Origin: Actinomycetota bacterium | GTDB taxonomy: Bacteria > Actinomycetota > Acidimicrobiia > IMCC26256 > PALSA-555 | NCBI GenBank assembly: GCA_016870355.1 | Contig: VGBR01000001.1 | Span: 438,989 to 502,988, forward strand | Reading direction: 5' to 3' | Length of the DNA stretch: 64,000 bases | Part shown: positions 28,355 through 53,769 of the stretch, piece after piece | Position numbering within the stretch: position 1 is the first letter of the stretch | How the letters are laid out: the number at the start of each line of letters is the position of its first letter | Position numbers and translations under genes: made by a program | Notes under the pieces: model-generated | What the model saw: only the letters and a program-made list of their open reading frames with translations | The model's database searches: none | Told to the model about the DNA's origin: nothing

Positions 28355-29719
28355 ATGGATGCGCTGGTCGCGGTGCTGGGCGCGGAGCCGTCGCAGCTCC
28401 TGCCGGCCCGCACGCAGATGGCGTTCACGCTCGGCTTCCACATCATCCTCGTACCGATGGGCGTGGCCTTCACGTTCATCACACTGCTCGCGCACTACCG
28501 CGGCCTGAAGCACGACGACGAAGACGCGCTGCGGCTCGCGCAGCGGTGGTCGAAGGTCGCGGCGGTGCTGTTCGCGGTCGGCGCGGTGACCGGCACCGTG
28601 CTCACGTTCGAGATGGGCCTGCTGTGGCCGCGCCTCATGGGCAAGTTCGGGGACGCGTACGGGATCCCGTTCGCGATTGAGGGTCTGTTCTTCTTCCTCG
28701 AGGCGATCTTCATCGCCATCTACATCTACGGATGGAAGCGCCTGCCGCGGTGGCCGCACTTCTTCACCGGCATCCCTGTGGTGCTCGCCGGGATCGGGGG
28801 CACGCTCTCGGTCGTCGCAGCCAACGCATGGATGAACACGCCCGACGGATTCACGCTCCGCAACGGCAAGGTGACAGATGTCGACGTGGGTGCGGTCATC
28901 TTCACCGACGCGTTCTGGCACGAGAGCCTTCACATGCTGCTCGCCGCGTACCTCGTCGCCGGCTTCATGGTCGCGTCCGTGTACGCCTACGCAATGCTGC
29001 GCGGGCGGCGCGATCGGCACCACCGGCTCGGGTTCCTGTTCGCGTTCAGCGTCGCCGCGGTGGTGATGCCGCTGCAGATCGTGGTTGGCGACCTGGCCGC
29101 ACGCGAGGTGTTCAAGCAGCAACCGATCAAGTTCGCCGCACAGGAGCTCGTCTACGAGACCCAACGCAACGCACCCGAGGTGATCGGCGGAATCCTCGTC
29201 GACGGCGAGGTGAAGTACGGGATCAAGATCCCGGGCCTGGCGTCGTTCCTCGCCGACTACGACACCAACACCAAGATCATCGGCCTCGAATCGGTGCCCG
29301 AGCGCGACCGTCCACCCGCGAACATCGTTCACCTCGCGTTCAACACCATGGTCGGCATCGCGTTCGCGCTGCTTGCGCTGTCAGCATGGTTCGGCATTGC
29401 CTTGTGGCGGAAGCGCGAGCTGCCGAAGTCCCCGTGGTTCTTGCGCGGTGCGGTTGCGGCCGGCGCCCTGTCGGTGGTGGCGATGGAAGCCGGGTGGGTC
29501 GTCACCGAGGTCGGTCGGCAGCCGTGGGTGATCCAGGGGATCCTTCGCACGGAAGACGCGGTCACTCGTGCCGGCGGGATCTGGATCAGCCTTGCCGTGG
29601 TCGTCGTCCTCTACGCGCTCGTCGGCACGGCGACGATCCTCGTACTGCGCGGGATGGCGCGTCGTTGGCGGACCGCGGATGCCGAAGAGACACCGGTGCC
29701 GTACGGGCCCCGCCCATGA
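28355..29719 (+). CDS. cydA: Cytochrome bd oxidase subunit I
   Basis: This 454-residue polytopic subunit carries the hemes of the quinol oxidase that reduces O2 to water at low oxygen. The heme His stands in AFTLGFHIILVPMG; the conserved Glu is in IPFAIEGLFFFLEAIF; a second His pair in FWHESLHMLLAAYL. The quinol site has KQQPIKFAAQE, and the C-terminal part shows GRQPWVIQGILRTEDAVT. The periplasmic Q-loop is short (IKIPGLASFLADYDTNTKI), which places it nearer the short-loop, CioA-like oxidases than the E. coli long-loop enzyme. It is coupled to cydB by an ATGA overlap. No cydCD genes are nearby. Confidence 0.93.
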   Translation: MDALVAVLGAEPSQLLPARTQMAFTLGFHIILVPMGVAFTFITLLAHYRGLKHDDEDALRLAQRWSKVAAVLFAVGAVTGTVLTFEMGLLWPRLMGKFGDAYGIPFAIEGLFFFLEAIFIAIYIYGWKRLPRWPHFFTGIPVVLAGIGGTLSVVAANAWMNTPDGFTLRNGKVTDVDVGAVIFTDAFWHESLHMLLAAYLVAGFMVASVYAYAMLRGRRDRHHRLGFLFAFSVAAVVMPLQIVVGDLAAREVFKQQPIKFAAQELVYETQRNAPEVIGGILVDGEVKYGIKIPGLASFLADYDTNTKIIGLESVPERDRPPANIVHLAFNTMVGIAFALLALSAWFGIALWRKRELPKSPWFLRGAVAAGALSVVAMEAGWVVTEVGRQPWVIQGILRTEDAVTRAGGIWISLAVVVVLYALVGTATILVLRGMARRWRTADAEETPVPYGPRP

Positions 29720-38330: not shown

Positions 38331-39553
38331 CGATCGGAGCACTCTCGCGGCGCGGCTTTCGCGACCTGTTCGTCGGGCAGACCATCTCCAGCCTCGGCGA
38401 CTGGATGGCGACGGTCGCGTTCATGGCCCTCACGCTGGAGATCACGGACTCGCCAGCCGCGGTCGGTGGCATCCTCACGTTGCGGTTGCTCCCCGCCGCA
38501 CTCGGTGGGCCGTTGGCGGCGCGTGCCATCCGACACTGGGACCGGCGCCGCACGATGCTCGCCATGGACGTCAGCCGCGCCGGAATCGTCGCGCTCGTGC
38601 CGCTCATCGCCGAGCTGTGGTGGGTATATCTGTGCGCGGTTCTGCTGGAGGTGGCGAGCATCGTCTTCCTTCCCGCGCGCGATGCATCGATCCCCGATCT
38701 GGTCGAACCCGAAGATCTCCCTGTCGCGAACGGCCTCGTGCTCGGCGCGTCGTACGGTTCCATCCCCATCGGGGCTGCGCTCTTCGCCGCACTCACCGCG
38801 ATGTCGTTCGCGGACGCGTTCGACCGTCCCTTCGCGCTCGTGTTCTGGGTCGATGCCGCGTCGTTCCTTGTGTCCTTCCTCTTCATCGCTCGCCTTCATC
38901 AGCTGCGGGCACCAGTCGGTGAGGTGACGACGCCGGACAAGGTCAGGTTTCGCGACGCGTTCCGAATCCCGCTCGTCCGTGCGGTCATGCCCGCCGCGGC
39001 AGCGGTCGCGTTCGGTCTCGGTGCCTTGTTCTCGATGGGCATCGTGTTCGTACGGGTCGTGGTCGACGCTGGCGACGTCGACTTCGGCGTGCTCATTGCG
39101 CTGTTCGGTGTGGGCGCAGCCGGCGGCCTGCTCGTGTTGAGAGCTCGGGTCGGTCATGACCCGGTGCGGGAGACCCGTGCTGGGGTGCTCGCGATCGGCG
39201 TGATCGTGGCGGCGTTCTCGCTGACCGCGTCGATCGGGTTGGCGTTCGTCGGTGCGCTCTTGTTCGGTGGCGCCGCGGCGTTCACGCTCGCCTCGGGCAT
39301 GGGCGCGCTCCAGTCCGATCTCGAAGGCCACGAGCGCGTGCTTGCGTTCGCGGCGTTCCACGTCGTGATCCGCCTCGCGCTCGGGGTCGCAGCCGTGGCC
39401 GCCGGCCTGGTGGGGGAGGCGCTCGGCGACGCCGACGCGGGAGTGATCGGGTCGCTCGAACCGGCCCGCGTTGTGCTTCTGGCATCGGGTCTGCTCGTCT
39501 TGTTGGCGTCGCTGTCGGTGCGCGCCGAGCAAGGCTCAACGGTGTCCGCATGA
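38327..39553 (+). CDS. MFS transporter
   Basis: A 408-residue major facilitator with about twelve helices. The N-terminus FRDLFVGQTISSLGDWMATVAF is characteristic of the EntS/MFS_3 exporter group, and the cytoplasmic loop RAIRHWDRRRTMLAMDVSRA between helices 2 and 3 gives the family RxxDRR pattern. The start GTG 38327 overlaps the plsY-like stop and its own stop overlaps degV. Its placement between two lipid-linked genes suggests a lipophilic substrate such as a lysolipid or fatty acid, which is inference only. Confidence 0.85.
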   Translation: MTIGALSRRGFRDLFVGQTISSLGDWMATVAFMALTLEITDSPAAVGGILTLRLLPAALGGPLAARAIRHWDRRRTMLAMDVSRAGIVALVPLIAELWWVYLCAVLLEVASIVFLPARDASIPDLVEPEDLPVANGLVLGASYGSIPIGAALFAALTAMSFADAFDRPFALVFWVDAASFLVSFLFIARLHQLRAPVGEVTTPDKVRFRDAFRIPLVRAVMPAAAAVAFGLGALFSMGIVFVRVVVDAGDVDFGVLIALFGVGAAGGLLVLRARVGHDPVRETRAGVLAIGVIVAAFSLTASIGLAFVGALLFGGAAAFTLASGMGALQSDLEGHERVLAFAAFHVVIRLALGVAAVAAGLVGEALGDADAGVIGSLEPARVVLLASGLLVLLASLSVRAEQGSTVSA

Positions 39554-45183: not shown

Positions 45184-46335
45184 TCAGGGTGACGGCCCAT
45201 CGTCTGGACCGTCGCGGGATCGGTCATCGTCACGGTGGATCCGTCGCAGGTCACCGGGCACGTCGGGATCACCGACCAGCCGCCACGGTCCGTGCGGCTC
45301 GTAGCCGTGATGGCAGGGCACGCACACCCCGGCCAGCTTCTTGGGGTCGTGGGTGCCACCAGTGCTGCGCGGGTCCATGTGGTGGATCTCGCGCGCCGGC
45401 CGCTCGCACCCTGGGGTGCGGCACTCCCGATCGCGCGCCAGCACGAAGCGGCGCACCTCAGCCGGGATGCTCTCCTGGTCGAGGTCGCTGCTCGGCACGA
45501 GCCCGCCCAGGTCGTCGACGACCTGACGGGTCGCGCGCGGCGGCACGTCGGCGAGGAACTCGGCGAGCCGCCGCTTCGCCACCGCTACACCGTTCGCTTC
45601 CAGCGCGTCCGGATCGTCGGCGCGCACCTGCACCATCACGAGCGGCTTGAAGCTTCCCTTCGTCGCCGGGTCAGCGTCGGCGTAGTTGCGAACGAGGTCC
45701 ATGAACGCATCCGCCATCCGATGGGCACGGGTGTCCCACGGCTGACCGGGTGCGGGCTTCATGCGATCGATCATCCGCTCGAGCACCGCTTCGGCGAGTA
45801 CGCCGTCGATGTCGGGCAGGTCGCCGCGGAACGAGACCATGCCGGCCTCAGGCCGACGCCAGATCGAGAAGTTGCGCGCCTCGATGCGCGCATCGGAGGT
45901 CTCGGTGCTCACCCGGCGAGTCCGGCGGGCCAGTCGCCGCAATTCGCTCGGCGAGCAGCGCTGACCGCGTGCTGCCCACTCCTCGTCAGTGTCGGGTGTG
46001 GCGATCTCCACCACGGGCTCGAGCTGGTCCCACGTGAGCTCGCCCGCGTGCGCGGCTGCTGCGATCGCGGGCTGCTGCTCGAGCGCACGGCCAACTTCGA
46101 CAAGTGAGCGGGCGGTTCGAGCGGAGATCGTCGTGTCTCGGCCGTCGAGCGCTTCGCGCTCGTCGAGCACCCGGGTGATCGCGACTCGTTCGAGGCGCCA
46201 GCGCTGCTCTTCGTCGCCCGCCTCGCCGAGGAGCTTTCGCAGCACGTCGGTAGGGTGGCAGCGGAGATCGTCGACACGCGCGCCGAAGTCGTACGTCGCC
46301 TCTTCTCCGGGGGCGTCCATCGCGGGATCGAACAT
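45184..46335 (-). CDS. HNH endonuclease, DUF222 (13E12-repeat) family, SOS-controlled
   Basis: A 383-residue protein with an N-terminal DUF222 helical region (about residues 40-280; RTARSLVEVGRALEQQP, LVMVQVRADDPDAL) and a C-terminal HNH nuclease: CRTPGCERPAREIHHMDPR, then LAGVCVPCHHGYEPHG, with a Cys4-like Zn frame and the catalytic His-His. ATG 46335 is fixed by the promoter: TTGCAA, 17 bp, TACAAT, then a LexA-type palindrome lying over the start codon. The mycobacterial 13E12 family is known to include LexA-regulated members. The biological job is unknown; mobility, competence or DNA repair have been considered. Confidence 0.9.
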   Translation of the reverse strand: MFDPAMDAPGEEATYDFGARVDDLRCHPTDVLRKLLGEAGDEEQRWRLERVAITRVLDEREALDGRDTTISARTARSLVEVGRALEQQPAIAAAAHAGELTWDQLEPVVEIATPDTDEEWAARGQRCSPSELRRLARRTRRVSTETSDARIEARNFSIWRRPEAGMVSFRGDLPDIDGVLAEAVLERMIDRMKPAPGQPWDTRAHRMADAFMDLVRNYADADPATKGSFKPLVMVQVRADDPDALEANGVAVAKRRLAEFLADVPPRATRQVVDDLGGLVPSSDLDQESIPAEVRRFVLARDRECRTPGCERPAREIHHMDPRSTGGTHDPKKLAGVCVPCHHGYEPHGPWRLVGDPDVPGDLRRIHRDDDRSRDGPDDGPSP

Positions 46336-46343
46336 ACGTTCGA
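46328..46343. promoter_or_regulatory. LexA (SOS) box overlapping the HNH gene start
   Basis: TCGAACATACGTTCGA is a perfect match to the Gram-positive/mycobacterial SOS box (CGAAC-N4-GTTCG). With one more base on each side it is an 18-bp dyad. It covers the ATG (46335-46333) and touches the -10 box, so LexA would block initiation of transcription. Confidence 0.85.
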
Positions 46344-46371
46344 TTGTAGAAGCCCGGTGAGACAGTTGCAA
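46343..46371 (-). promoter_or_regulatory. SigA-type promoter of the HNH gene
   Basis: TTGCAA (46371-46366), an exact 17-bp spacer and TACAAT (46348-46343) form the best vegetative promoter in the window. The transcript would begin at about the ATG, so it should be leaderless. Confidence 0.65.
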
Positions 46372-46511: not shown

Positions 46512-47726
46512 ATGTCGGACTTCAGCCTCGACCTCAACGAGGACCAGATCCAGATCCAGAAGTGGGTCCACGACTTCGCCGAGGACGTCGTGCGCCCCGT
46601 GGCCGCCGAGTGGGACGAGCGGGAAGAGACCCCGTGGCCGGTGATCGAAGAGGCGGCCAAGATCGGCCTCTACACGCTCGACTTCTTCGCGCAGTGCGCG
46701 GCCGATCCCGCGGGATTGATGCTCGCGCTCGCGAGTGAGGAGCTCGCGTGGGGCGACGCCGGCATCACGCTCTCCGTGCTCGGGAGCACGCTCGCGGTCA
46801 GCGGCATCATCGCCAGCGGCACGCCCGAGCAGCAGGGTGAGTGGCTCCCGCAGTGCTTCGGCACGCCGGACAAGGTCCAGCTCGGCGCGTTCGCTGTCAG
46901 CGAGCCCGACGCCGGCAGCGACGTCTCGAGCCTGCGCACCCGGGCCGAGTACGACGAGAAGTCCGACGAGTGGGTGCTCAACGGCACCAAGACCTGGATC
47001 ACCAACGGCGGCATCGCCGACGTGCACGTGATCGTCGCCGCGGTCGACCCCGAGCTCAAGGGTCGTGGTCACGCGGCCTTCGTGATCGGCCCCGACACGC
47101 CCGGCATCAGCCAGGGCCAGAAGTTCAAGAAGCACGGCATCCGGGCGAGCCACACCGCCGAGGTGATCCTCGACGACTGCCGGATCCCTGGCGCCAACTT
47201 GCTGGGAGGGAAGGACAAGCTCGACCTTCGCCTCGCCCGGGCCCGTGAGGGTGGCAAGACCAAGACTCAAGCCGCGATGAGCACATTCGAGGCCACGAGG
47301 CCGCTCGTCGGCGCGCAGGCCATCGGCATCGCGCGGGCGGCCTACGAGTACTCGCTCGAGTACGCGAAGGAGCGCAAGGCGTTCGGCCGCCCGATCATCG
47401 AGAACCAGGGCATCGCCTTCAAGCTGTCCGACATGAAGATGGAGATCGACGCGGCCCGGCTCCTCGTCTGGCGAGCGTGCTGGATGGCGGCGGTCAAGAA
47501 GCCGTTCGAGTCGGGCGAGGGTTCGATGAGCAAGCTCAAGGCCGGTGAGGTGGCGGTGCACGCGACCGAGGAGGCCATCCAGATCCTCGGGGGCTACGGC
47601 TACACCCGGGACTACCCGGTCGAGCGCTGGCACCGGGACGCCAAGATCTACACGATCTTCGAAGGCACCTCCGAGATCCAGCGCCTGGTGATCGCCCGCG
47701 CCGTTTCAGGGCTTCACATTCCGTGA
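46512..47726 (+). CDS. Acyl-CoA dehydrogenase
   Basis: A 404-residue acyl-CoA dehydrogenase. [20 protein letters not shown] and [19 protein letters not shown] bind flavin; the base Glu is in [20 protein letters not shown], as in short/medium-chain enzymes; [20 protein letters not shown] is the family signature. The strong ribosome site GAGGAGG (6 nt before the ATG) contrasts with the leaderless starts of its neighbours and suggests high expression. Length and motifs fit the central fatty-acid beta-oxidation group. It is preceded by a TetR-type operator and followed by a hairpin. Confidence 0.92.
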
Positions 47727-47736
47727 TCTGAGAGGT

Positions 47737-47764
47737 TCGGCGCCGAGCCCGAAATCGGCGCCGA
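47737..47764 (+). terminator. Paired palindromes after the acyl-CoA dehydrogenase gene
   Basis: The self-complementary decamer TCGGCGCCGA occurs at 47737-47746 and 47755-47764, 8 nt apart, so the RNA can fold into one hairpin. It starts 10 nt after the stop and marks the left border of the integrase remnant. Confidence 0.5.
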
Positions 47765-47783
47765 GGTGAACGACCCGGTGTGA

Positions 47784-48340
47784 GTCGAGACGTCCTGCCG
47801 GGATTACGAGAGCCGGGTCGCCAAGATCGAGGCCGACGCCATCGCGACGACCAACGTGGCGCGGCTCAGCGTGGCCGACGTCGAGCGCTGGCACGCGCGG
47901 ATGCGGAAGACGGCCTTGGGGGAGGCCGCGATTCGTAGCCGGCACGCCGTCCTGCGCGCCGCGCTCGCGCAGGCGGTCCGCTGGGACTGGGTGGGCGTGA
48001 ACGTCGCGAGCCAGACGCGGTTGCGCGGTCCACGGCGCGCGCCGCGCGAGGCGATGAGCGCGGACGACGTTCGTGCGGTGATCGAGGCGGCCCGGGCGCT
48101 CGACCCCGCTGCCGGGCTGGCATTGCGGCTGGCCGCGGTCGCGGGGCTGCGCCCGGCCGAGATCGCCGCGCTGGGACGAGCTCGACGGCGCGCAGCTCAA
48201 GGTCGACAGCAGCGCGTGCCTCGTCCGCGGCGACGGCGAGCCCGTCGTCGAGGACGTGCAGACCAAGCCGGCGAACTCGCGCGTCGTCACGCTCGACGAG
48301 CGGACGGTCGACGAGATCGCGCAGCTGCGCGCCGCGCATC
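47784..48340 (+). pseudogene. Tyrosine integrase remnant, truncated at both ends and frameshifted
   Basis: In frame from 47784 the sequence reads DYESRVAKIEADAIATTN, RLSVADVERWHARMRKTAL and AVLRAALAQAVRWDWV: the SAM-like core-binding domain of phage integrases. Then LALRLAAVAGLRPAEIAAL begins the catalytic domain, including its first Arg. At about 48170 the frame changes (about 4 nt lost) and the reading continues WDELDGAQLKVDSSACLV, VVEDVQTKPANSRVVTLDE and ERTVDEIAQLRAAHQ. It stops dead at about 48335. The arm-binding N-terminus and the rest of the catalytic domain (HxxR, Tyr) are absent. The product must be inactive; it marks a former mobile element or recombination event. Confidence 0.75.
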
Positions 48341-48361
48341 AAGGCCCAGCTCGCGCTCCCG

Positions 48362-49384
48362 TTGCTCCTCATCCACGGTTCCCAGACGCCGGTGGCATCC
48401 AGCATCGGGATCGCCGTGACGGGCGCGGATGCGAGCACGAGCGAGGAGCTCATGCGCAATGCCGACATCGCGATGTACAGCGCCAAGAACGAGGGCAAGG
48501 CGCGGTGTCGGGTCTTCGAGTCGAGCATGCACAGCATCGTGCTGGAACGCGTCGCGCTCCAATCCGATCTCCGTCACGCGATCGAGCGATCGGAGTTGGA
48601 GCTCCACTACCAACCGGTGATCGAGCTCGTGACTGGCCGACCCCTCGGTTTCGAGGCTCTCGTACGTTGGAACCATTTCGAGCGCGGCATGATCCAGCCG
48701 CTCGAGTTCATCGGCCTTGCCGAAGAGACCGGCCTGATCACTCCGATCGGCGACTGGGTGCTCGCCGAGGCGTGCCGGCAGCTGGTGCAGTGGGACGACG
48801 CGGGAGTCACGGACGGACGCTTCGGGATCAGTGTCAACGTCTCCGGTCGGCAGGTTGCGGATGCGGACTTCGTCGACACGATTGCCCGCACCTTGGCCGC
48901 GACCGAGCTCGATCCTCGACGGCTCACGATCGAGCTCACCGAGAGCACGTTGCTCGAAGACGCCGAGGCGACGATCGCTTGGCTGTCGCTGCTCAAGGAG
49001 GTGGGGATCCGGCTCGCGCTCGACGACTTCGGCACGGGCTTCTCGTCACTCAGCTATCTGCGGCGTCTCCCCGTCGACTGCCTGAAGGTCGACGCCTCGT
49101 TCGTGCGGTCGATCAACGAGAGCGGAGGGGGTGGCGAGCTGGCGCTCGCAGTGGTGAACCTGGCACGCACGCTGCGCCTGCGCACGGTCGCCGAGGGCGT
49201 CGAGCACGCGCACCAAGCTGAGTTCCTGACCCGCTCGGGATGTCGATTCGGTCAGGGGTACCACTTCAGCCGCCCGCTGCCTCGAGGGGAGATCCCGGCA
49301 TTCATCCAGGGCGCGTTGCTCGCGCTCAACGGCGGTGACGAGCAGTCCACCGGGGGCGAAGCGCTCACACCCGAGTTGGTGTAG
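48362..49384 (+). CDS. EAL-domain cyclic-di-GMP phosphodiesterase with truncated GGDEF domain
   Basis: Codons similar to the family begin at about 48330 (RIKAQLALPLLLIHGSQTP), directly behind the integrase remnant, so the 5' end is lost; TTG 48362 or an ATG near 48450 may serve as start. Only the last 50 residues of GGDEF remain (SSIGIAVTGAD, NADIAMYSAKNEGKARCR), without the GGDEF motif itself. The EAL domain is complete: PLGFEALVRWNH, ISVNVSGRQ, IELTEST, ALDDFGTGFSS, LKVDASFV, VAEGVEHA and GQGYHFSRPLP keep the metal and catalytic residues. If expressed it should degrade c-di-GMP. Confidence 0.78.
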   Translation: MLLIHGSQTPVASSIGIAVTGADASTSEELMRNADIAMYSAKNEGKARCRVFESSMHSIVLERVALQSDLRHAIERSELELHYQPVIELVTGRPLGFEALVRWNHFERGMIQPLEFIGLAEETGLITPIGDWVLAEACRQLVQWDDAGVTDGRFGISVNVSGRQVADADFVDTIARTLAATELDPRRLTIELTESTLLEDAEATIAWLSLLKEVGIRLALDDFGTGFSSLSYLRRLPVDCLKVDASFVRSINESGGGGELALAVVNLARTLRLRTVAEGVEHAHQAEFLTRSGCRFGQGYHFSRPLPRGEIPAFIQGALLALNGGDEQSTGGEALTPELV

Positions 49385-49440
49385 GCGCCAACGCGAGAGC
49401 CTCCTGACATGCGGGCGGCATGGCGACGTTGGAGCATTGC

Positions 49441-49590
49441 GTGAAGCCGCGCGCCGTCGTCATCGCTCTGGCTCTCGGCATCGGGAGCAGCGTGATCCCG
49501 GCATCTGCGGAGGTCGCGACCCACGCCAAGCCAGCGGGCTCCGATGGTTGTGGCGGCAAGGCCGCGAAGCGCGACGAGCAGCTCCTCCTA
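49441..49590 (+). other. Orphan signal-peptide ORF, possible 5' gene fragment
   Basis: GTG 49441, 7 nt after GGAG, opens VKPRAVVIALALGIGSSVIP followed by ASAEV, a convincing signal peptide with cleavage site, then about 25 polar residues with one Cys (SDGCGGKAAKRD). From 49588 the frame runs antisense through the LLM gene and looks non-coding. It may be the start of a secreted-protein gene whose remainder was lost near the recombination scar. Confidence 0.35.
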
Positions 49591-50499
49591 GAGCGAACGG
49601 AGCAGCTCGCGCGTCCGCTCTCGATCAGGGCTCTTGTACGGCGCGAACTCAGCAGCAATCAGATCGCTGGTGCCGAGATCGGCGAGCGCCGCGATCTGAT
49701 CCCTCACCGACGACTCGTCGCCGACGATAACGACGTCACCGGGTCCTTCGGCTCCCGAACGATCGAGCATTGCCCGGTACGACGGCAACGACCCGTACAT
49801 CTGGAAGATCTTGTTCGCGCGGTCGCGCGCCGCATCGGGGTCGTCGGTGACGCACACCGGCAGAGCGACGACGATGCGGGGAGCCGGTCGGCTCGCGCGC
49901 TCGGCCGCGGCGGTGATCGAAGGCACGATGTGCTCACCGATGCCCTTCGGTCCCGTCATCCAGGTGACCGTTCCGTCGGCAACGGTGCCCGCGAGCTCCA
50001 GCATCTTCGGACCAAGCGCCGCAACGAGGATCGGCATCGGTGTCGACCCTTCGACGGCGACGGGACAGCTCGCGCTCATCGTCTCGCCGGTGAACGACAC
50101 GTTCCCTTCACGGATGAGTGCTGTCAGCACCGTCAGGTACTCGCGCATGTGACGCACCGGCTTCTCGAAGGACAGGCCCCACATCCCTTCGACGACGAGC
50201 TGATGCGAGAGTCCGATGCCCAAGAGCAGGCGGCCGCCGCTGATGGCCTGCGTCGTCATCGCCTGTGCGGCGAGAACCATCGGATGGCGCGGGTACGTGG
50301 GAACGACTGCAGTACCGAGCTCGATCTCGGGCACCTCGCGAGCAACCACGGCGAGCAGCGTGAGTGCGTCGAAGCCGAACACCTGCGGCGCCCAGAAGGT
50401 GGCGAAGCCTTCTTCGTGCACCGTCCGCGCGGCGGCGATGACGTCGTCGGCGGTCTTGCCGGCGAAGTCGCCACCGAAGATCCCGATCTTCATGCTCAT
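49588..50499 (-). CDS. LLM-class flavin/F420-dependent oxidoreductase
   Basis: A 303-residue luciferase-like enzyme. MKIGIFGGDFAGK starts the barrel; FATFWAPQVFGFDALTLLAV, LGTAVVPTYPRHPMVLAAQA and SGGRLLLGIGLSHQLVVEG are the group signatures, followed by GPKMLELAGTVADGTVTWM in the cofactor region. It matches a subgroup annotated as F420-dependent in mycobacteria (from memory, TIGR03564). ATG 50499 or 50493 is the start. It is the last gene of a minus-strand operon with a CoA-transferase and an epimerase (26 bp gap). Substrate unknown. Confidence 0.85.
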   Translation of the reverse strand: MSMKIGIFGGDFAGKTADDVIAAARTVHEEGFATFWAPQVFGFDALTLLAVVAREVPEIELGTAVVPTYPRHPMVLAAQAMTTQAISGGRLLLGIGLSHQLVVEGMWGLSFEKPVRHMREYLTVLTALIREGNVSFTGETMSASCPVAVEGSTPMPILVAALGPKMLELAGTVADGTVTWMTGPKGIGEHIVPSITAAAERASRPAPRIVVALPVCVTDDPDAARDRANKIFQMYGSLPSYRAMLDRSGAEGPGDVVIVGDESSVRDQIAALADLGTSDLIAAEFAPYKSPDRERTRELLRSL

Positions 50500-50524: not shown

Positions 50525-51721
50525 TCATGCGACCACTCCGTCGGCCCGCAGTGCATCGATCCGGTCGCCGAGCCCGAGCTCTCGGAGGATCTCGTCGGTG
50601 TGCTGACCGAGATCAGGGGCCGGGATCCCGTGTGAAGCCGGTGTCGCGGTGAACTGCGCGGGGTGACGCGGCTGACGAACGGGACCGACGGTGGGGTGCT
50701 CGGATTCGATGAGCAGACCGATGGCCTCGACGTGAGGATCGGCTGCGAGCTCTTCGGGGCGCACGATGACGCCACACGGAACGCGTTGTGCCTCGAGTCG
50801 CGCCATGGCGTCTTCGGTCGAGAGCTTGGCGGCAGCGGCGTAGCACTGCGCGACGAGCTCGTTCGTGATCTCGCGATGCTTCACACGTTCGCCGATGGTC
50901 GCGACGCGCGGGTCGTCGTAGCCCTCGACGCCGAACGCCTTGCACATGCCGGTGAAGTCGGCGTCCGAGGTCGGCGTGCAGATGCCCCACCCATCGGTGA
51001 ACTGCAACGGCCGGAAGCTCTGCACGAAGCTCGACGGCTGCGAGCCATCGGCCATCATCAGCACCTCGTTGCCGGCGGCATCGACCCAGAGGAACGAAAC
51101 GACGGCGTCGAGCATCGAGAGATGGAGGTGCTGTCCGCCTGAGCCGCGCTCGCGCGCGAGCAGCGCGGCAGTGATCGCCTGAGCGGCGTAGAGCGCGGTG
51201 ACCTTGTCTGCCGCGGTCTGACGAAGGAACTGCGGCTCGCCCGTCTCGGGATCGGCCTGGTTCCCGGCGAATCCGCCGTACGCCTGGATCACCGTGTCGT
51301 AGGCGCTCTTCGGCGCGTAAGGCCCGTCAGGTCCGAAGCCGGAGAGCGACGCGTAGATCAGGTCGGGGTTCTCCTTGCGGAGATCGTCGTAGCCGACGCC
51401 CAAACGATCCACCACGCCGGGTCGGTAGTTCTGCACGACGACGTCGACGTCGCGGGCAAGGCGGTGCACGATGTCGCGGCCTTCGTCGGTGTGGATGTCA
51501 CACGCGATCGATCGCTTGCCTCTGTTGCACATGAGGAACAGCGCGCTCATGCCGTTGACGGACACGCCGACCCAACGGCCGATGTCTCCGATGCCAGGGC
51601 GTTCGACCTTGATGACCTCCGCGCCCTGGTCTGCGAGCAAGGTCGCCGCGTACGGGCCGGTCGCGGCGATTGACATGTCGAGCACGCGCACGCCAGCGAG
51701 CGGTCCGGTTCCTTCGCTCAC
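50525..51721 (-). CDS. CaiB/BaiF family CoA-transferase
   Basis: A 398-residue class III CoA-transferase. LAGVRVLDMSIAATGPYAA and GAEVIKVERPGIGDIGRW open the Rossmann part, and NRGKRSIACDI follows. The catalytic Asp is present (SAYDTVIQAYGGFAG), in contrast to the protein at 4554. GTG 51721 gives a GTGA overlap with the epimerase stop. It should pass CoA from a donor such as succinyl-CoA to an acid handled by the neighbouring LLM enzyme and the SDR/crotonase genes upstream. Confidence 0.88.
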   Translation of the reverse strand: MSEGTGPLAGVRVLDMSIAATGPYAATLLADQGAEVIKVERPGIGDIGRWVGVSVNGMSALFLMCNRGKRSIACDIHTDEGRDIVHRLARDVDVVVQNYRPGVVDRLGVGYDDLRKENPDLIYASLSGFGPDGPYAPKSAYDTVIQAYGGFAGNQADPETGEPQFLRQTAADKVTALYAAQAITAALLARERGSGGQHLHLSMLDAVVSFLWVDAAGNEVLMMADGSQPSSFVQSFRPLQFTDGWGICTPTSDADFTGMCKAFGVEGYDDPRVATIGERVKHREITNELVAQCYAAAAKLSTEDAMARLEAQRVPCGVIVRPEELAADPHVEAIGLLIESEHPTVGPVRQPRHPAQFTATPASHGIPAPDLGQHTDEILRELGLGDRIDALRADGVVA

Positions 51722-52827
51722 GCGTCGAACACCTCCTTCGAGCGGGGACGCCCGCCCGGGCCGCTGTACGCCAGTCCGTAGCCCGGCTCGGTCTTGAACT
51801 CGGCAGCATGGACCACGGCGTCACGCGCGTGTGACCACGCGTCGATCAATCGGTCTTCCGCGGCGTAGTCGAACGGATCGGTGAGCACTTGCTCCTCCAT
51901 CTCGCCTGGTGCATGCGGGTGGTCGGCAAGCCAACGAGCTGTGACGCCGATGGCGTCGCGGGCGGGAATGACATCGCGATAGCCGAGCACCGTCCGCACT
52001 CGCGTGAGGTCCAGCACGCGATGTGTGGGAAGAGGTTGCGCGAGCAGCGGACGTGCTGGAACGGCAAGGTCGAACGGCATCGAGACGATTTCGAAGTGGT
52101 GTCCAAGCGCGGCGGCAACGAGCTCGACCACCTGACGGACGGTGAGCACCTCTTCATCGCCGACGTTGAAGACAAGTCCGGCCGCCGCGTCGGGATTCGC
52201 GACTGCGAGCAGAACCGCATGGGCCAGGTTCTCGGTGAAGCCGTGGTGATGGAGCGTCAGTCCATCGTCGGCGACGACGATCCGATCGCGCCCGTCCAGC
52301 ACCCGGCGCACGATGCACCACTCGCGCGGTGCCAGCTGGAGCGGTCCGTATACGTATGGGTAACGGAAGTGCGCGGCCGTTGGATGGTGCTCGAACACCG
52401 CTTCTTCGGTGCGGACGATTCGATACCCCTTCTCGTCCTCGCCGGGTTCGGTGACCGTCGCGGCATCCTCGGCCACGGGCACTGGCAATCCCGCCGGATC
52501 GTGCAGCCACGGGTTCATCCAGCCCCGGTACGCAGGGACTCCTCCGACTGAGAGGAACTGGCCGGTGCGCCCTTCGAGCAACCGGGCGGCCGCGCGCAAG
52601 CGCCCATACATCACGAGTGTCACGTCGAACGTCGAGGATCCGAGGCCTTCGGCGAGTGATGCCTCGTCGTACGGATCACAGTGGAGGTGCTCGACCTCCG
52701 CTGGCGTCTCGTCTCGTTCGTGCTGCCCGCGATGGAGGATCGTGACCGCGTAGCCGCGGTCGATCAGGCCCCGGACGATCGGCATCCCGGTCGGGCCGGT
52801 CCCGCCGACGACCAAGGCCTTGTCCAC
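51718..52827 (-). CDS. NAD-dependent epimerase/dehydratase family protein
   Basis: A 369-residue extended-SDR protein. The N-terminal nucleotide loop is ALVVGGTGPTGMPIVRGL (GGTGxTG); a YPYVYGP motif appears near residue 165 where epimerases usually hold Tyr-x-x-x-Lys, so the catalytic dyad may be missing or shifted. The C-terminal 60 residues (DYAAEDRLIDAWSHARDAV) are longer than usual. It may be an isoflavone-reductase-like or plant-BAN-like reductase. GTG 52827 starts 3 nt left of repeat copy C. It heads the epimerase, CoA-transferase, LLM operon. Confidence 0.8.
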   Translation of the reverse strand: MDKALVVGGTGPTGMPIVRGLIDRGYAVTILHRGQHERDETPAEVEHLHCDPYDEASLAEGLGSSTFDVTLVMYGRLRAAARLLEGRTGQFLSVGGVPAYRGWMNPWLHDPAGLPVPVAEDAATVTEPGEDEKGYRIVRTEEAVFEHHPTAAHFRYPYVYGPLQLAPREWCIVRRVLDGRDRIVVADDGLTLHHHGFTENLAHAVLLAVANPDAAAGLVFNVGDEEVLTVRQVVELVAAALGHHFEIVSMPFDLAVPARPLLAQPLPTHRVLDLTRVRTVLGYRDVIPARDAIGVTARWLADHPHAPGEMEEQVLTDPFDYAAEDRLIDAWSHARDAVVHAAEFKTEPGYGLAYSGPGGRPRSKEVFDA

Positions 52828-52881: not shown

Positions 52882-53769
52882 TCAGGCATCCGGCGTGAAA
52901 GGTCCCTTGCCCATCTGGTCGCGCACGGTCACGACAGGTGGGTTCGTGAGGCTGCGCCGCTGCCAGTTCGCTCCGTCGACCACGAGCGTGTGACCGGAGA
53001 TGAATCGGCCGTACGGGGACGCGAGGAAGGTGGCGGCCCATCCGAGCTCTTGTCGCTGCCCGACGCGCATCGCGGGCTGCGCACTGTCCTTGTCGCTCGT
53101 GCGGTCGAGGTTGCCCTTGATGTCGTCGGTCATGTCCTCGTGCGGGAACAAGCCGGGGACGAGACCGTTCACCTGGATGCCGTAGGGGCCCCACTCGACT
53201 GCCAGGGACTCGGTCAGGTTCTTCACGCCTGCCTTGGCCGCGGCGGAGTGCGCGAAGCCGGGTCCACCCGTCCATGCGTAGCTCGCCCCGACGTTGATGA
53301 TGGATCCGGGCGTCCCAGCAGTGAGGTGCCGACGGGCGAATTCCCGCGCGCACAGGTACGTGCCGTTCAAGGTGATGTCGATCACCGTGCGCCATGCATT
53401 CGGCGACATGTCTTCTGCCGGCACTGGGAAGTTCGCTGCCGCGTTGTTCACCAGCACGCCAGGAAGTCCGAACGCCTGCTCTGCTGCATCGAACGCTCCC
53501 GCCACGCTGTCGGCATCACGGATGTCGCACACGGCTGTCGCAACCGATGCCTGCAAGGCCTCCATGGCTGCGCGGCCAGCGTCGAGATGCTCGTCCTTGC
53601 GGCTCGCGATCACGATCGCGGCACCCAACCGAGCGAACTCCGACGCGATCGCCTTTCCCAGACCAGTTCCACCACCGGTCACGAGGACGCACGTTCCATC
53701 AAACGTGCCCGGCCTCAGGGCCGTCTCGCCTGCCGCGGGTGGGGCGGGGAGCCCGATCGGCTCGGTCAT
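52882..53769 (-). CDS. SDR-family oxidoreductase, 2,4-dienoyl-CoA reductase-like
   Basis: A 295-residue SDR with the loop TGGGTGLGKAIASEF, ASRKDEHLDAG after strand two (NADP-type Arg-Lys) and NNAAANFPVP. At the active site the text reads GPGFAHSAAAKAGVKNL: the Tyr of classical SDRs is replaced by Ser while Lys is kept, as in eukaryotic-type 2,4-dienoyl-CoA reductases and enoyl reductases. A reduction of an unsaturated acyl-CoA is therefore more likely than alcohol oxidation. ATG 53769 is the start. The crotonase gene 41 bp upstream is on the same strand. Confidence 0.82.
   Translation of the reverse strand: MTEPIGLPAPPAAGETALRPGTFDGTCVLVTGGGTGLGKAIASEFARLGAAIVIASRKDEHLDAGRAAMEALQASVATAVCDIRDADSVAGAFDAAEQAFGLPGVLVNNAAANFPVPAEDMSPNAWRTVIDITLNGTYLCAREFARRHLTAGTPGSIINVGASYAWTGGPGFAHSAAAKAGVKNLTESLAVEWGPYGIQVNGLVPGLFPHEDMTDDIKGNLDRTSDKDSAQPAMRVGQRQELGWAATFLASPYGRFISGHTLVVDGANWQRRSLTNPPVVTVRDQMGKGPFTPDA

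What the first reader, a model, noticed from the sequence alone, without database searches (positions are those of the whole stretch)
47784..49384. Integrase remnant fused to a decapitated GGDEF-EAL gene
Seen: an integrase segment (core-binding domain and first catalytic Arg) runs out at about 48335 in one frame, and at the same place a GGDEF gene resumes about 70 residues after its motif in another frame, then continues as an intact EAL domain. Neither gene has its other part nearby. This looks like a recombination or deletion scar that turned a dual GGDEF-EAL protein into a possible EAL-only phosphodiesterase. An assembly chimera is the main alternative.
Basis: partly seen in the sequence, partly recalled or inferred. 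Interest (0 to 1): 0.65.

Follow-up and report, generated by a model that had tools for sequence, protein, structure and literature searches.

The report
Integrase relic joined to truncated GGDEF-EAL gene
A dead fragment of a mobile-element integrase, stuck where its relatives insert at the tail of an acyl-CoA dehydrogenase gene, has been joined by a deletion to the back half of a signalling gene; the scar is probably real but ordinary, though it led to a repeatedly used insertion site for mobile elements in this bacterial class.

Summary
The junction exists. A tyrosine-recombinase relic (about 47760-48336) lies directly downstream of an intact acyl-CoA dehydrogenase gene (ACAD, 46512-47726) and abuts the last 55 residues or so of a GGDEF domain plus a complete EAL domain (to 49384). 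No fused protein is encoded.

A same-genus genome (G003, Baikal-deep-G33) has the intact orthologue (TM-PAS-GGDEF-EAL, 79-82% identical), followed, two genes further on, by the same downstream genes. G001 has ACAD and those downstream genes 7 kb apart in the same orientation. Full-length relatives of the integrase sit right after ACAD in 11 of 14 genomes of the class that carry them; in five, a 60-95 bp ACAD-tail direct repeat lies downstream on the same contig. The locus looks like attL of a decayed mobilizable element; one microhomology-type deletion removed the rest of the element and the GGDEF gene's front 600 codons. A chimera is unlikely but unexcluded without reads. EAL-only activity is possible, not shown. 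The ACAD 3'-end attachment site is the more interesting by-product.

The parts
46512..47726 (+). Acyl-CoA dehydrogenase gene, intact (404 aa); its last ~80 bp are the attachment site (attL) of the integrase family
   Evidence: Pfam ACAD domains; orthologous DNA in most relatives searched; direct repeats of this tail downstream of integrases in G176, G391, G347, G057, G020
47645..47731 (+). Inferred attL core (ACAD 3' end, encodes [25 protein letters not shown], plus the first bases after the stop)
   Evidence: Boundaries from the direct repeats of relatives; the tip ATTCCGTGATCT differs from genus-mates (ATCGACTGACG) and resembles integrase-bearing genomes, but also some integrase-free ones
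47760..48174 (+). Integrase (tyrosine recombinase) relic, first segment, frame 0: core-binding domain to first catalytic Arg; start codon and ~62 N-terminal codons missing; in-frame TGA at 47781-47783
48175..48336 (+). Integrase relic, second segment, frame 1 (DELDGAQLKVDSS...TVDEIAQLRAA); catalytic HxxR / H / Tyr part missing
   Evidence: GC 0.75 over 47750-48249 versus about 0.65-0.70 around
48329..48337 (.). Deletion junction; GC-rich overlap (about 6-8 nt) compatible with both flanks; no resemblance to the att core
   Evidence: DNA alignment to G003; att-core score below the window background mean
48335..48505 (+). C-terminal remnant of the GGDEF domain (from 17 residues after the GGDEF motif; motif itself absent)
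48563..49276 (+). Complete EAL domain with all catalytic motifs
   Evidence: Pfam EAL 2-236/236; alignment to solved MorA 4rnh
48452..49384 (+). Most plausible surviving open frame (ATG 48452 preceded by GAGGAG, 310 codons); earliest possible start is TTG 48362
49588..50487 (-). Luciferase-like monooxygenase gene (start codon not fixed; may lie further upstream), downstream synteny anchor (with CoA-transferase 50525-51721, 51718-52827, 52882-53769)
   Evidence: Pfam Bac_luciferase; same order next to intact GGDEF-EAL in G003; CoA-transferase block 7 kb from ACAD in G001

Best explanation
The locus is the remains of an integrative, probably mobilizable, element that inserted by its tyrosine recombinase into the 3' end of an acyl-CoA dehydrogenase gene, restoring the ACAD reading frame. 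The integrase then decayed (5' deletion, TGA stop, frameshift), and an illegitimate deletion at a short GC-rich overlap joined the middle of the integrase to the middle of a chromosomal TM-PAS-GGDEF-EAL gene lying downstream. The deletion removed the integrase catalytic end, the rest of the element with its attR, and about 600 codons of the GGDEF-EAL gene. Shown: anatomy, homology, synteny, att repeats in relatives. Inferred: order of events, deletion mechanism. What survives is an EAL domain with intact active-site residues that might be made as a ~310-aa EAL-only phosphodiesterase by read-through from ACAD, or might be a young pseudogene.
For: Intact orthologue of the EAL part at G003:C50, 79-82% identical, in a 954-codon frame with PAS, GGDEF and EAL, upstream of the same LLM / CoA-transferase / epimerase / SDR genes. 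ACAD and the CoA-transferase cluster 7 kb apart, same orientation, on one contig of G001. Homologous integrases directly after ACAD in G012, G016, G051, G057, G020, G176, G391, G347, G162, G302, G355. ACAD-tail direct repeats of 60-95 bp, mostly 95-98% identical, 6-14 kb downstream in G176 (single 4.97-Mb contig), G391, G347, G057, G020. ACAD tail occurs once in this genome; the missing GGDEF N-terminus is absent from it. Several independent integrase lesions. dN/dS of the EAL part 0.147.
Against: No reads were available, so a local misassembly at 48329-48337 is not formally excluded. No genome shows the ancestral state (element plus intact GGDEF-EAL between ACAD and LLM) on one contig. In G003 the contig ends before ACAD, and it has two more genes (DUF2252-like, PhoD-like by eye) between EAL and LLM; G001 lacks GGDEF-EAL and LLM in the interval. 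The dN/dS covers mostly the time before the deletion, so it does not show that the truncated gene is now under selection; P to F in the conserved RWxHP motif may be early decay.
Confidence: 0.85

Rival explanations
1. Assembly chimera or collapsed local misassembly in a metagenome-assembled genome: the contig wrongly joins two sequences at 48335.
For: The genome is in 31 contigs; no reads available; in G003, G016 and G002 contigs end close to ACAD or the integrase, showing the region can be hard to assemble.
Against: Both flanks belong at this chromosomal place by synteny with G001 and G003; the missing halves are not found elsewhere in the assembly (ACAD tail single); the integrase was already broken by lesions away from the junction.
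Confidence: 0.08
2. Compatible with the scar: the EAL remnant is today a functional EAL-only c-di-GMP phosphodiesterase, kept because losing the sensor and cyclase halves was useful.
For: Complete EAL domain and catalytic residues; no stop or frameshift in 347 codons; dN/dS 0.147, and no excess of amino-acid changes on this branch versus G003 (10 vs 13 and 4 vs 7 with the two outgroups); a possible start ATG 48452 with GAGGAG upstream. The genome has one other full EAL domain.
Against: No evidence of expression; ATG spacing to the GAGGAG is short (3 nt); P to F in the conserved RWxHP motif; frames of this G+C-rich DNA stay open by chance for hundreds of codons.
Confidence: 0.35
3. The integrase itself made the deletion by site-specific recombination between att and an att-like site inside GGDEF.
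For: The integrase family acts at this locus.
Against: The break lies inside the integrase coding region, not at an att site; the att core aligns to the junction no better than to random window segments (score 14 versus mean 15.1).
Confidence: 0.03

Closest known systems
Integrative and mobilizable elements / genomic islands with an integrase that insert in a protein-coding gene (SGI1 at trmE 3' end, PMC8409611; dusA-targeting islands at the dusA 5' end, PMC4482086; PAISt at bacA 3' end, PMC4057263)
   Same: Integrase gene at one end next to the target gene, direct repeats of the target end at both element ends, target gene kept whole, relaxase or cargo inside (TrwC relaxase in G176).
   Different: Target is the ACAD 3' end encoding the conserved FEGT..IQ motif, including ACAD paralogues only 36-37% identical to the window's; in the window only a broken integrase piece is left.
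Prophage prophiT49-3 of Mycobacterium abscessus, attB-21 in a fadE acyl-CoA dehydrogenase gene (PMC9934374)
   Same: An acyl-CoA dehydrogenase gene as attachment site.
   Different: Serine integrase, site near position 280 of the 1140-bp gene, probably inactivating it; here a tyrosine recombinase family uses the 3' end and keeps the gene whole.
GGDEF-EAL dual proteins such as MorA (4rnh)
   Same: EAL domain and the joining end of GGDEF align along their whole length.
   Different: The GGDEF motif, PAS and membrane part are deleted in the window.

Membership tests
ACAD-targeting tyrosine-recombinase element (as relic) | Integrase homologous to the family | tested here: met
   61-65% aa identity to full-length members
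ACAD-targeting tyrosine-recombinase element (as relic) | Integrase directly downstream of ACAD 3' end, same strand | tested here: met
   window 47726 -> about 47760; relatives mostly 74-110 nt from stop to integrase start
ACAD-targeting tyrosine-recombinase element (as relic) | Second copy of the ACAD tail (attR) downstream | tested here: not met
   Single copy in this genome; present in G176, G391, G347, G057, G020. Hence a relic, not an element
ACAD-targeting tyrosine-recombinase element (as relic) | Complete catalytic set R..HxxR..H/W..Y | tested here: not met
   Only the first Arg region remains
Dual GGDEF-EAL protein | GGDEF active-site motif | tested here: not met
   Homology starts 17 residues after the motif
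EAL c-di-GMP phosphodiesterase | Full EAL domain | tested here: met
   Pfam PF00563 2-236/236
EAL c-di-GMP phosphodiesterase | Catalytic motifs (EAL, N of VNVS, E of ELTES, DDFGTG, K of LKVD, E of AEGVE, Q of QGY) | tested here: met
   Alignment with MorA 4rnh
EAL c-di-GMP phosphodiesterase | Translated from a usable start | tested here: inconclusive
   TTG 48362 without SD; ATG 48452 with GAGGAG 3 nt upstream
EAL c-di-GMP phosphodiesterase | Enzyme activity | not testable with these tools
   needs purified protein

The most novel reading that the evidence does not exclude
A clade of tyrosine recombinases, found in several families of this bacterial class and beyond the window's order, uses the 3' end of acyl-CoA dehydrogenase genes (the DNA encoding the conserved FEGT..IQ motif) as attachment site, hits different ACAD paralogues, and builds tandem att-bounded arrays, including two ~0.9-kb units each carrying a near-identical Fic/Doc-type gene (G057). 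The window is a decayed member that lost its end together with the front of its chromosomal neighbour.
Probability: 0.8. Interest if true: 0.5.

Novelty: new member of a known kind. Interest (0 to 1): 0.33.

Why it matters
The scar itself is an ordinary example of how a decayed mobile element and a nearby deletion can strip the sensor and cyclase halves from a c-di-GMP enzyme, leaving a possible phosphodiesterase. The wider observation, a metabolic-gene end rather than a tRNA reused as an insertion hotspot by an integrase clade, gives a handle for mapping mobile elements in poorly cultured actinobacterial lineages, where islands away from tRNA genes are easily missed.

Tried and rejected
(1) tRNA as target: no tRNA found near the junction or downstream of ACAD in relatives. 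(2) The C-terminal integrase half on contig C12 (39261-39488) as the missing partner: it overlaps the relic's region and reads as a different integrase by eye. (3) GGDEF N-terminus moved elsewhere in the genome: not found. (4) att-like core at the junction: not above background. (6) A first dN/dS run used one outgroup on the wrong strand; repeated correctly. (7) Literature searches for ACAD 3' ends as attB found only a serine-integrase prophage in a fadE gene; most subscription papers are not in the library. (8) No structure was predicted: the full-length Pfam match and the alignment to solved EAL domains already answered whether the domain is complete.

Full report
Setting. The window is G000:C1:438989-502988 of a 2.8-Mb, 31-contig genome. 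The closest named relative is the Acidimicrobiia metagenome genome Baikal-deep-G33 (G003; the same locus is L107, SHVJ01000074.1).

What is there. From left to right: an HNH-type gene (45184-46371, minus), an intact acyl-CoA dehydrogenase (ACAD, 46512-47726, plus), an integrase piece, a GGDEF tail with a whole EAL domain ending at 49384 (plus), then a luciferase-like monooxygenase (LLM), a CoA-transferase, an epimerase-like gene, an SDR and an enoyl-CoA hydratase-like gene, all on minus (names of the last four genes from the translations by eye).

The integrase is a relic. Against full-length relatives (367 aa in G012) the window lacks about 62 N-terminal codons, has TGA at 47781 where G016 has Trp (EVNDPV*VETSCRDY versus EVNDSVWSEATRRDY), shifts frame near 48174 (AAL[RW]DEL, a 5-nt loss by my reading), and ends at LRAA (48336), before the HxxR, H and Tyr part. 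It is G+C-richer than its surroundings (0.75).

The GGDEF-EAL part. Its best relative, G003:C50, is 79-82% identical and sits in a 954-codon frame with a membrane-like N-terminus, PAS, GGDEF and EAL. DNA homology to G003 begins at 48329-48337, at GC-rich sequence compatible with both flanks, and the first matched residues (RIK / RLK) are 17 residues after GGDEF. The 587 residues before that point have no orthologue in G000; the other hits are weaker paralogous GGDEF or EAL proteins.

Why a deletion and not a chimera. G003 has intact GGDEF-EAL, then two genes, then LLM-CoA-transferase-epimerase-SDR in the same order and orientation as the window. G001 has, on one contig, an ABC-type gene, ACAD, 7 kb of other genes, then the CoA-transferase-epimerase-SDR-hydratase block, again in the window's orientation. 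So ACAD and the CoA-transferase side are chromosomal neighbours in the genus, GGDEF-EAL lies on that side in G003, and a deletion between them gives the window. Reads would still be the direct test.

Why an integrase is there at all. DNA similarity to the relic turned up just after ACAD in genomes of other families. A protein search of the order (58 genomes) and an even sample of the class (395 genomes) gave 14 genomes with close integrases; 11 have it directly downstream of an ACAD gene, a twelfth (G035) shows an ACAD tail at the contig end, and two more distant ones (G002, 49%; G106, 42%) do not. In three (G347, G302, G355) the ACAD is a paralogue only 36-37% identical to the window's, but with the same integrase position.

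Attachment sites. In G176 (single 4.97-Mb contig), G391, G347, G057 and G020 the last 60-95 bp of ACAD are repeated downstream of the integrase, mostly at 95-98% identity, at 14, 10.6, 8.4, 9 and 5.7 kb; G057 and G020 carry further copies, in G057 at spacings near 0.9 kb. In G176, G391, G057 and G020 the repeat begins sharply about 80 bp before the ACAD stop (in G347 nearer to it) and ends near it. That is attL/attR geometry in which the element restores the 3' end of its target. G012 has two ACAD-tail copies on another contig. A TrwC-type relaxase lies inside the repeats in G176, a near-identical 885-aa protein in G391 and relaxase-like frames in G057, so these look like mobilizable elements. 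Two of the small units of G057 carry a near-identical Fic/Doc-family gene.

The window as attL. Its ACAD tail occurs once in the genome, so attR has gone. The last codons and the bases after the stop (ATTCCGTGATCT) differ from same-genus G001 and G002 (ATCGACTGACG) and resemble integrase-bearing genomes, though some integrase-free ones look alike; this is suggestive only.

The surviving EAL. All catalytic motifs align with MorA. dN/dS to G003 is 0.147 at dS 0.89; changes are not enriched on the window branch (10 versus 13, and 4 versus 7, with two outgroups), but P to F in the conserved RWxHP motif is unusual. The earliest start codon in frame is TTG 48362; ATG 48452 has GAGGAG 3 nt upstream. 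Transcription could come from ACAD read-through (inference). I give an active EAL-only protein about one chance in three.

Mechanism of the deletion. The break lies inside coding sequence of both genes and has no att-like core, so illegitimate recombination at a short GC-rich overlap is the likeliest route; this step is inferred, because the parental sequences are not held.

Verdict. The finding is real with corrected details, its interpretation holds, and it is ordinary in kind. The by-product, ACAD 3' ends as a recurrent attachment site for a tyrosine-recombinase clade, appears undescribed in the library searched, where only a serine-integrase prophage in the body of a fadE gene was found (PMC9934374).

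Noticed in passing
L187/L188 (G057:C12), about 10.7-13.5 kb in the ACAD orientation, starting at 691000 and counting down: Tandem ACAD-tail repeats about 0.9 kb apart bound small units; two carry a near-identical 132-aa Fic/Doc-family gene, and a nucleotidyltransferase-like frame lies just beyond: an array of att-bounded toxin-type cassettes.
   Followed up: partly
L189 (G020:C78:115179-116105) and window 47727-47760: In both G020 and the window the integrase has lost its N-terminal 50-62 codons right beside the ACAD stop, an apparently recurrent 5' deletion; G051 and G302 integrases are frameshifted too.
   Followed up: partly
window 49385-49587: Short open stretch with a signal-peptide-like sequence (VKPRAVVIALALGIGSSVIPASAEVATHAKPAG) running into the monooxygenase 3' end, where G003 has two whole genes; perhaps a second deletion scar.
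   Followed up: no
G000:C12:26052-26579, 39261-39488 and C11:42160-42636: Other tyrosine recombinases in this genome, one a partial copy (profile 93-168); unrelated to the ACAD-targeting family by eye.
   Followed up: partly
window 28539-28629: ARAGORN reports a tRNA-like gene with a four-base anticodon (cgcg), probably a false or degenerate tRNA.
   Followed up: no
L067 (G001:C54): Between ACAD and the CoA-transferase block G001 holds an Hsp70-like gene and two dynamin-like GTPase genes (by eye), so this interval is a variable region in the genus.
   Followed up: no
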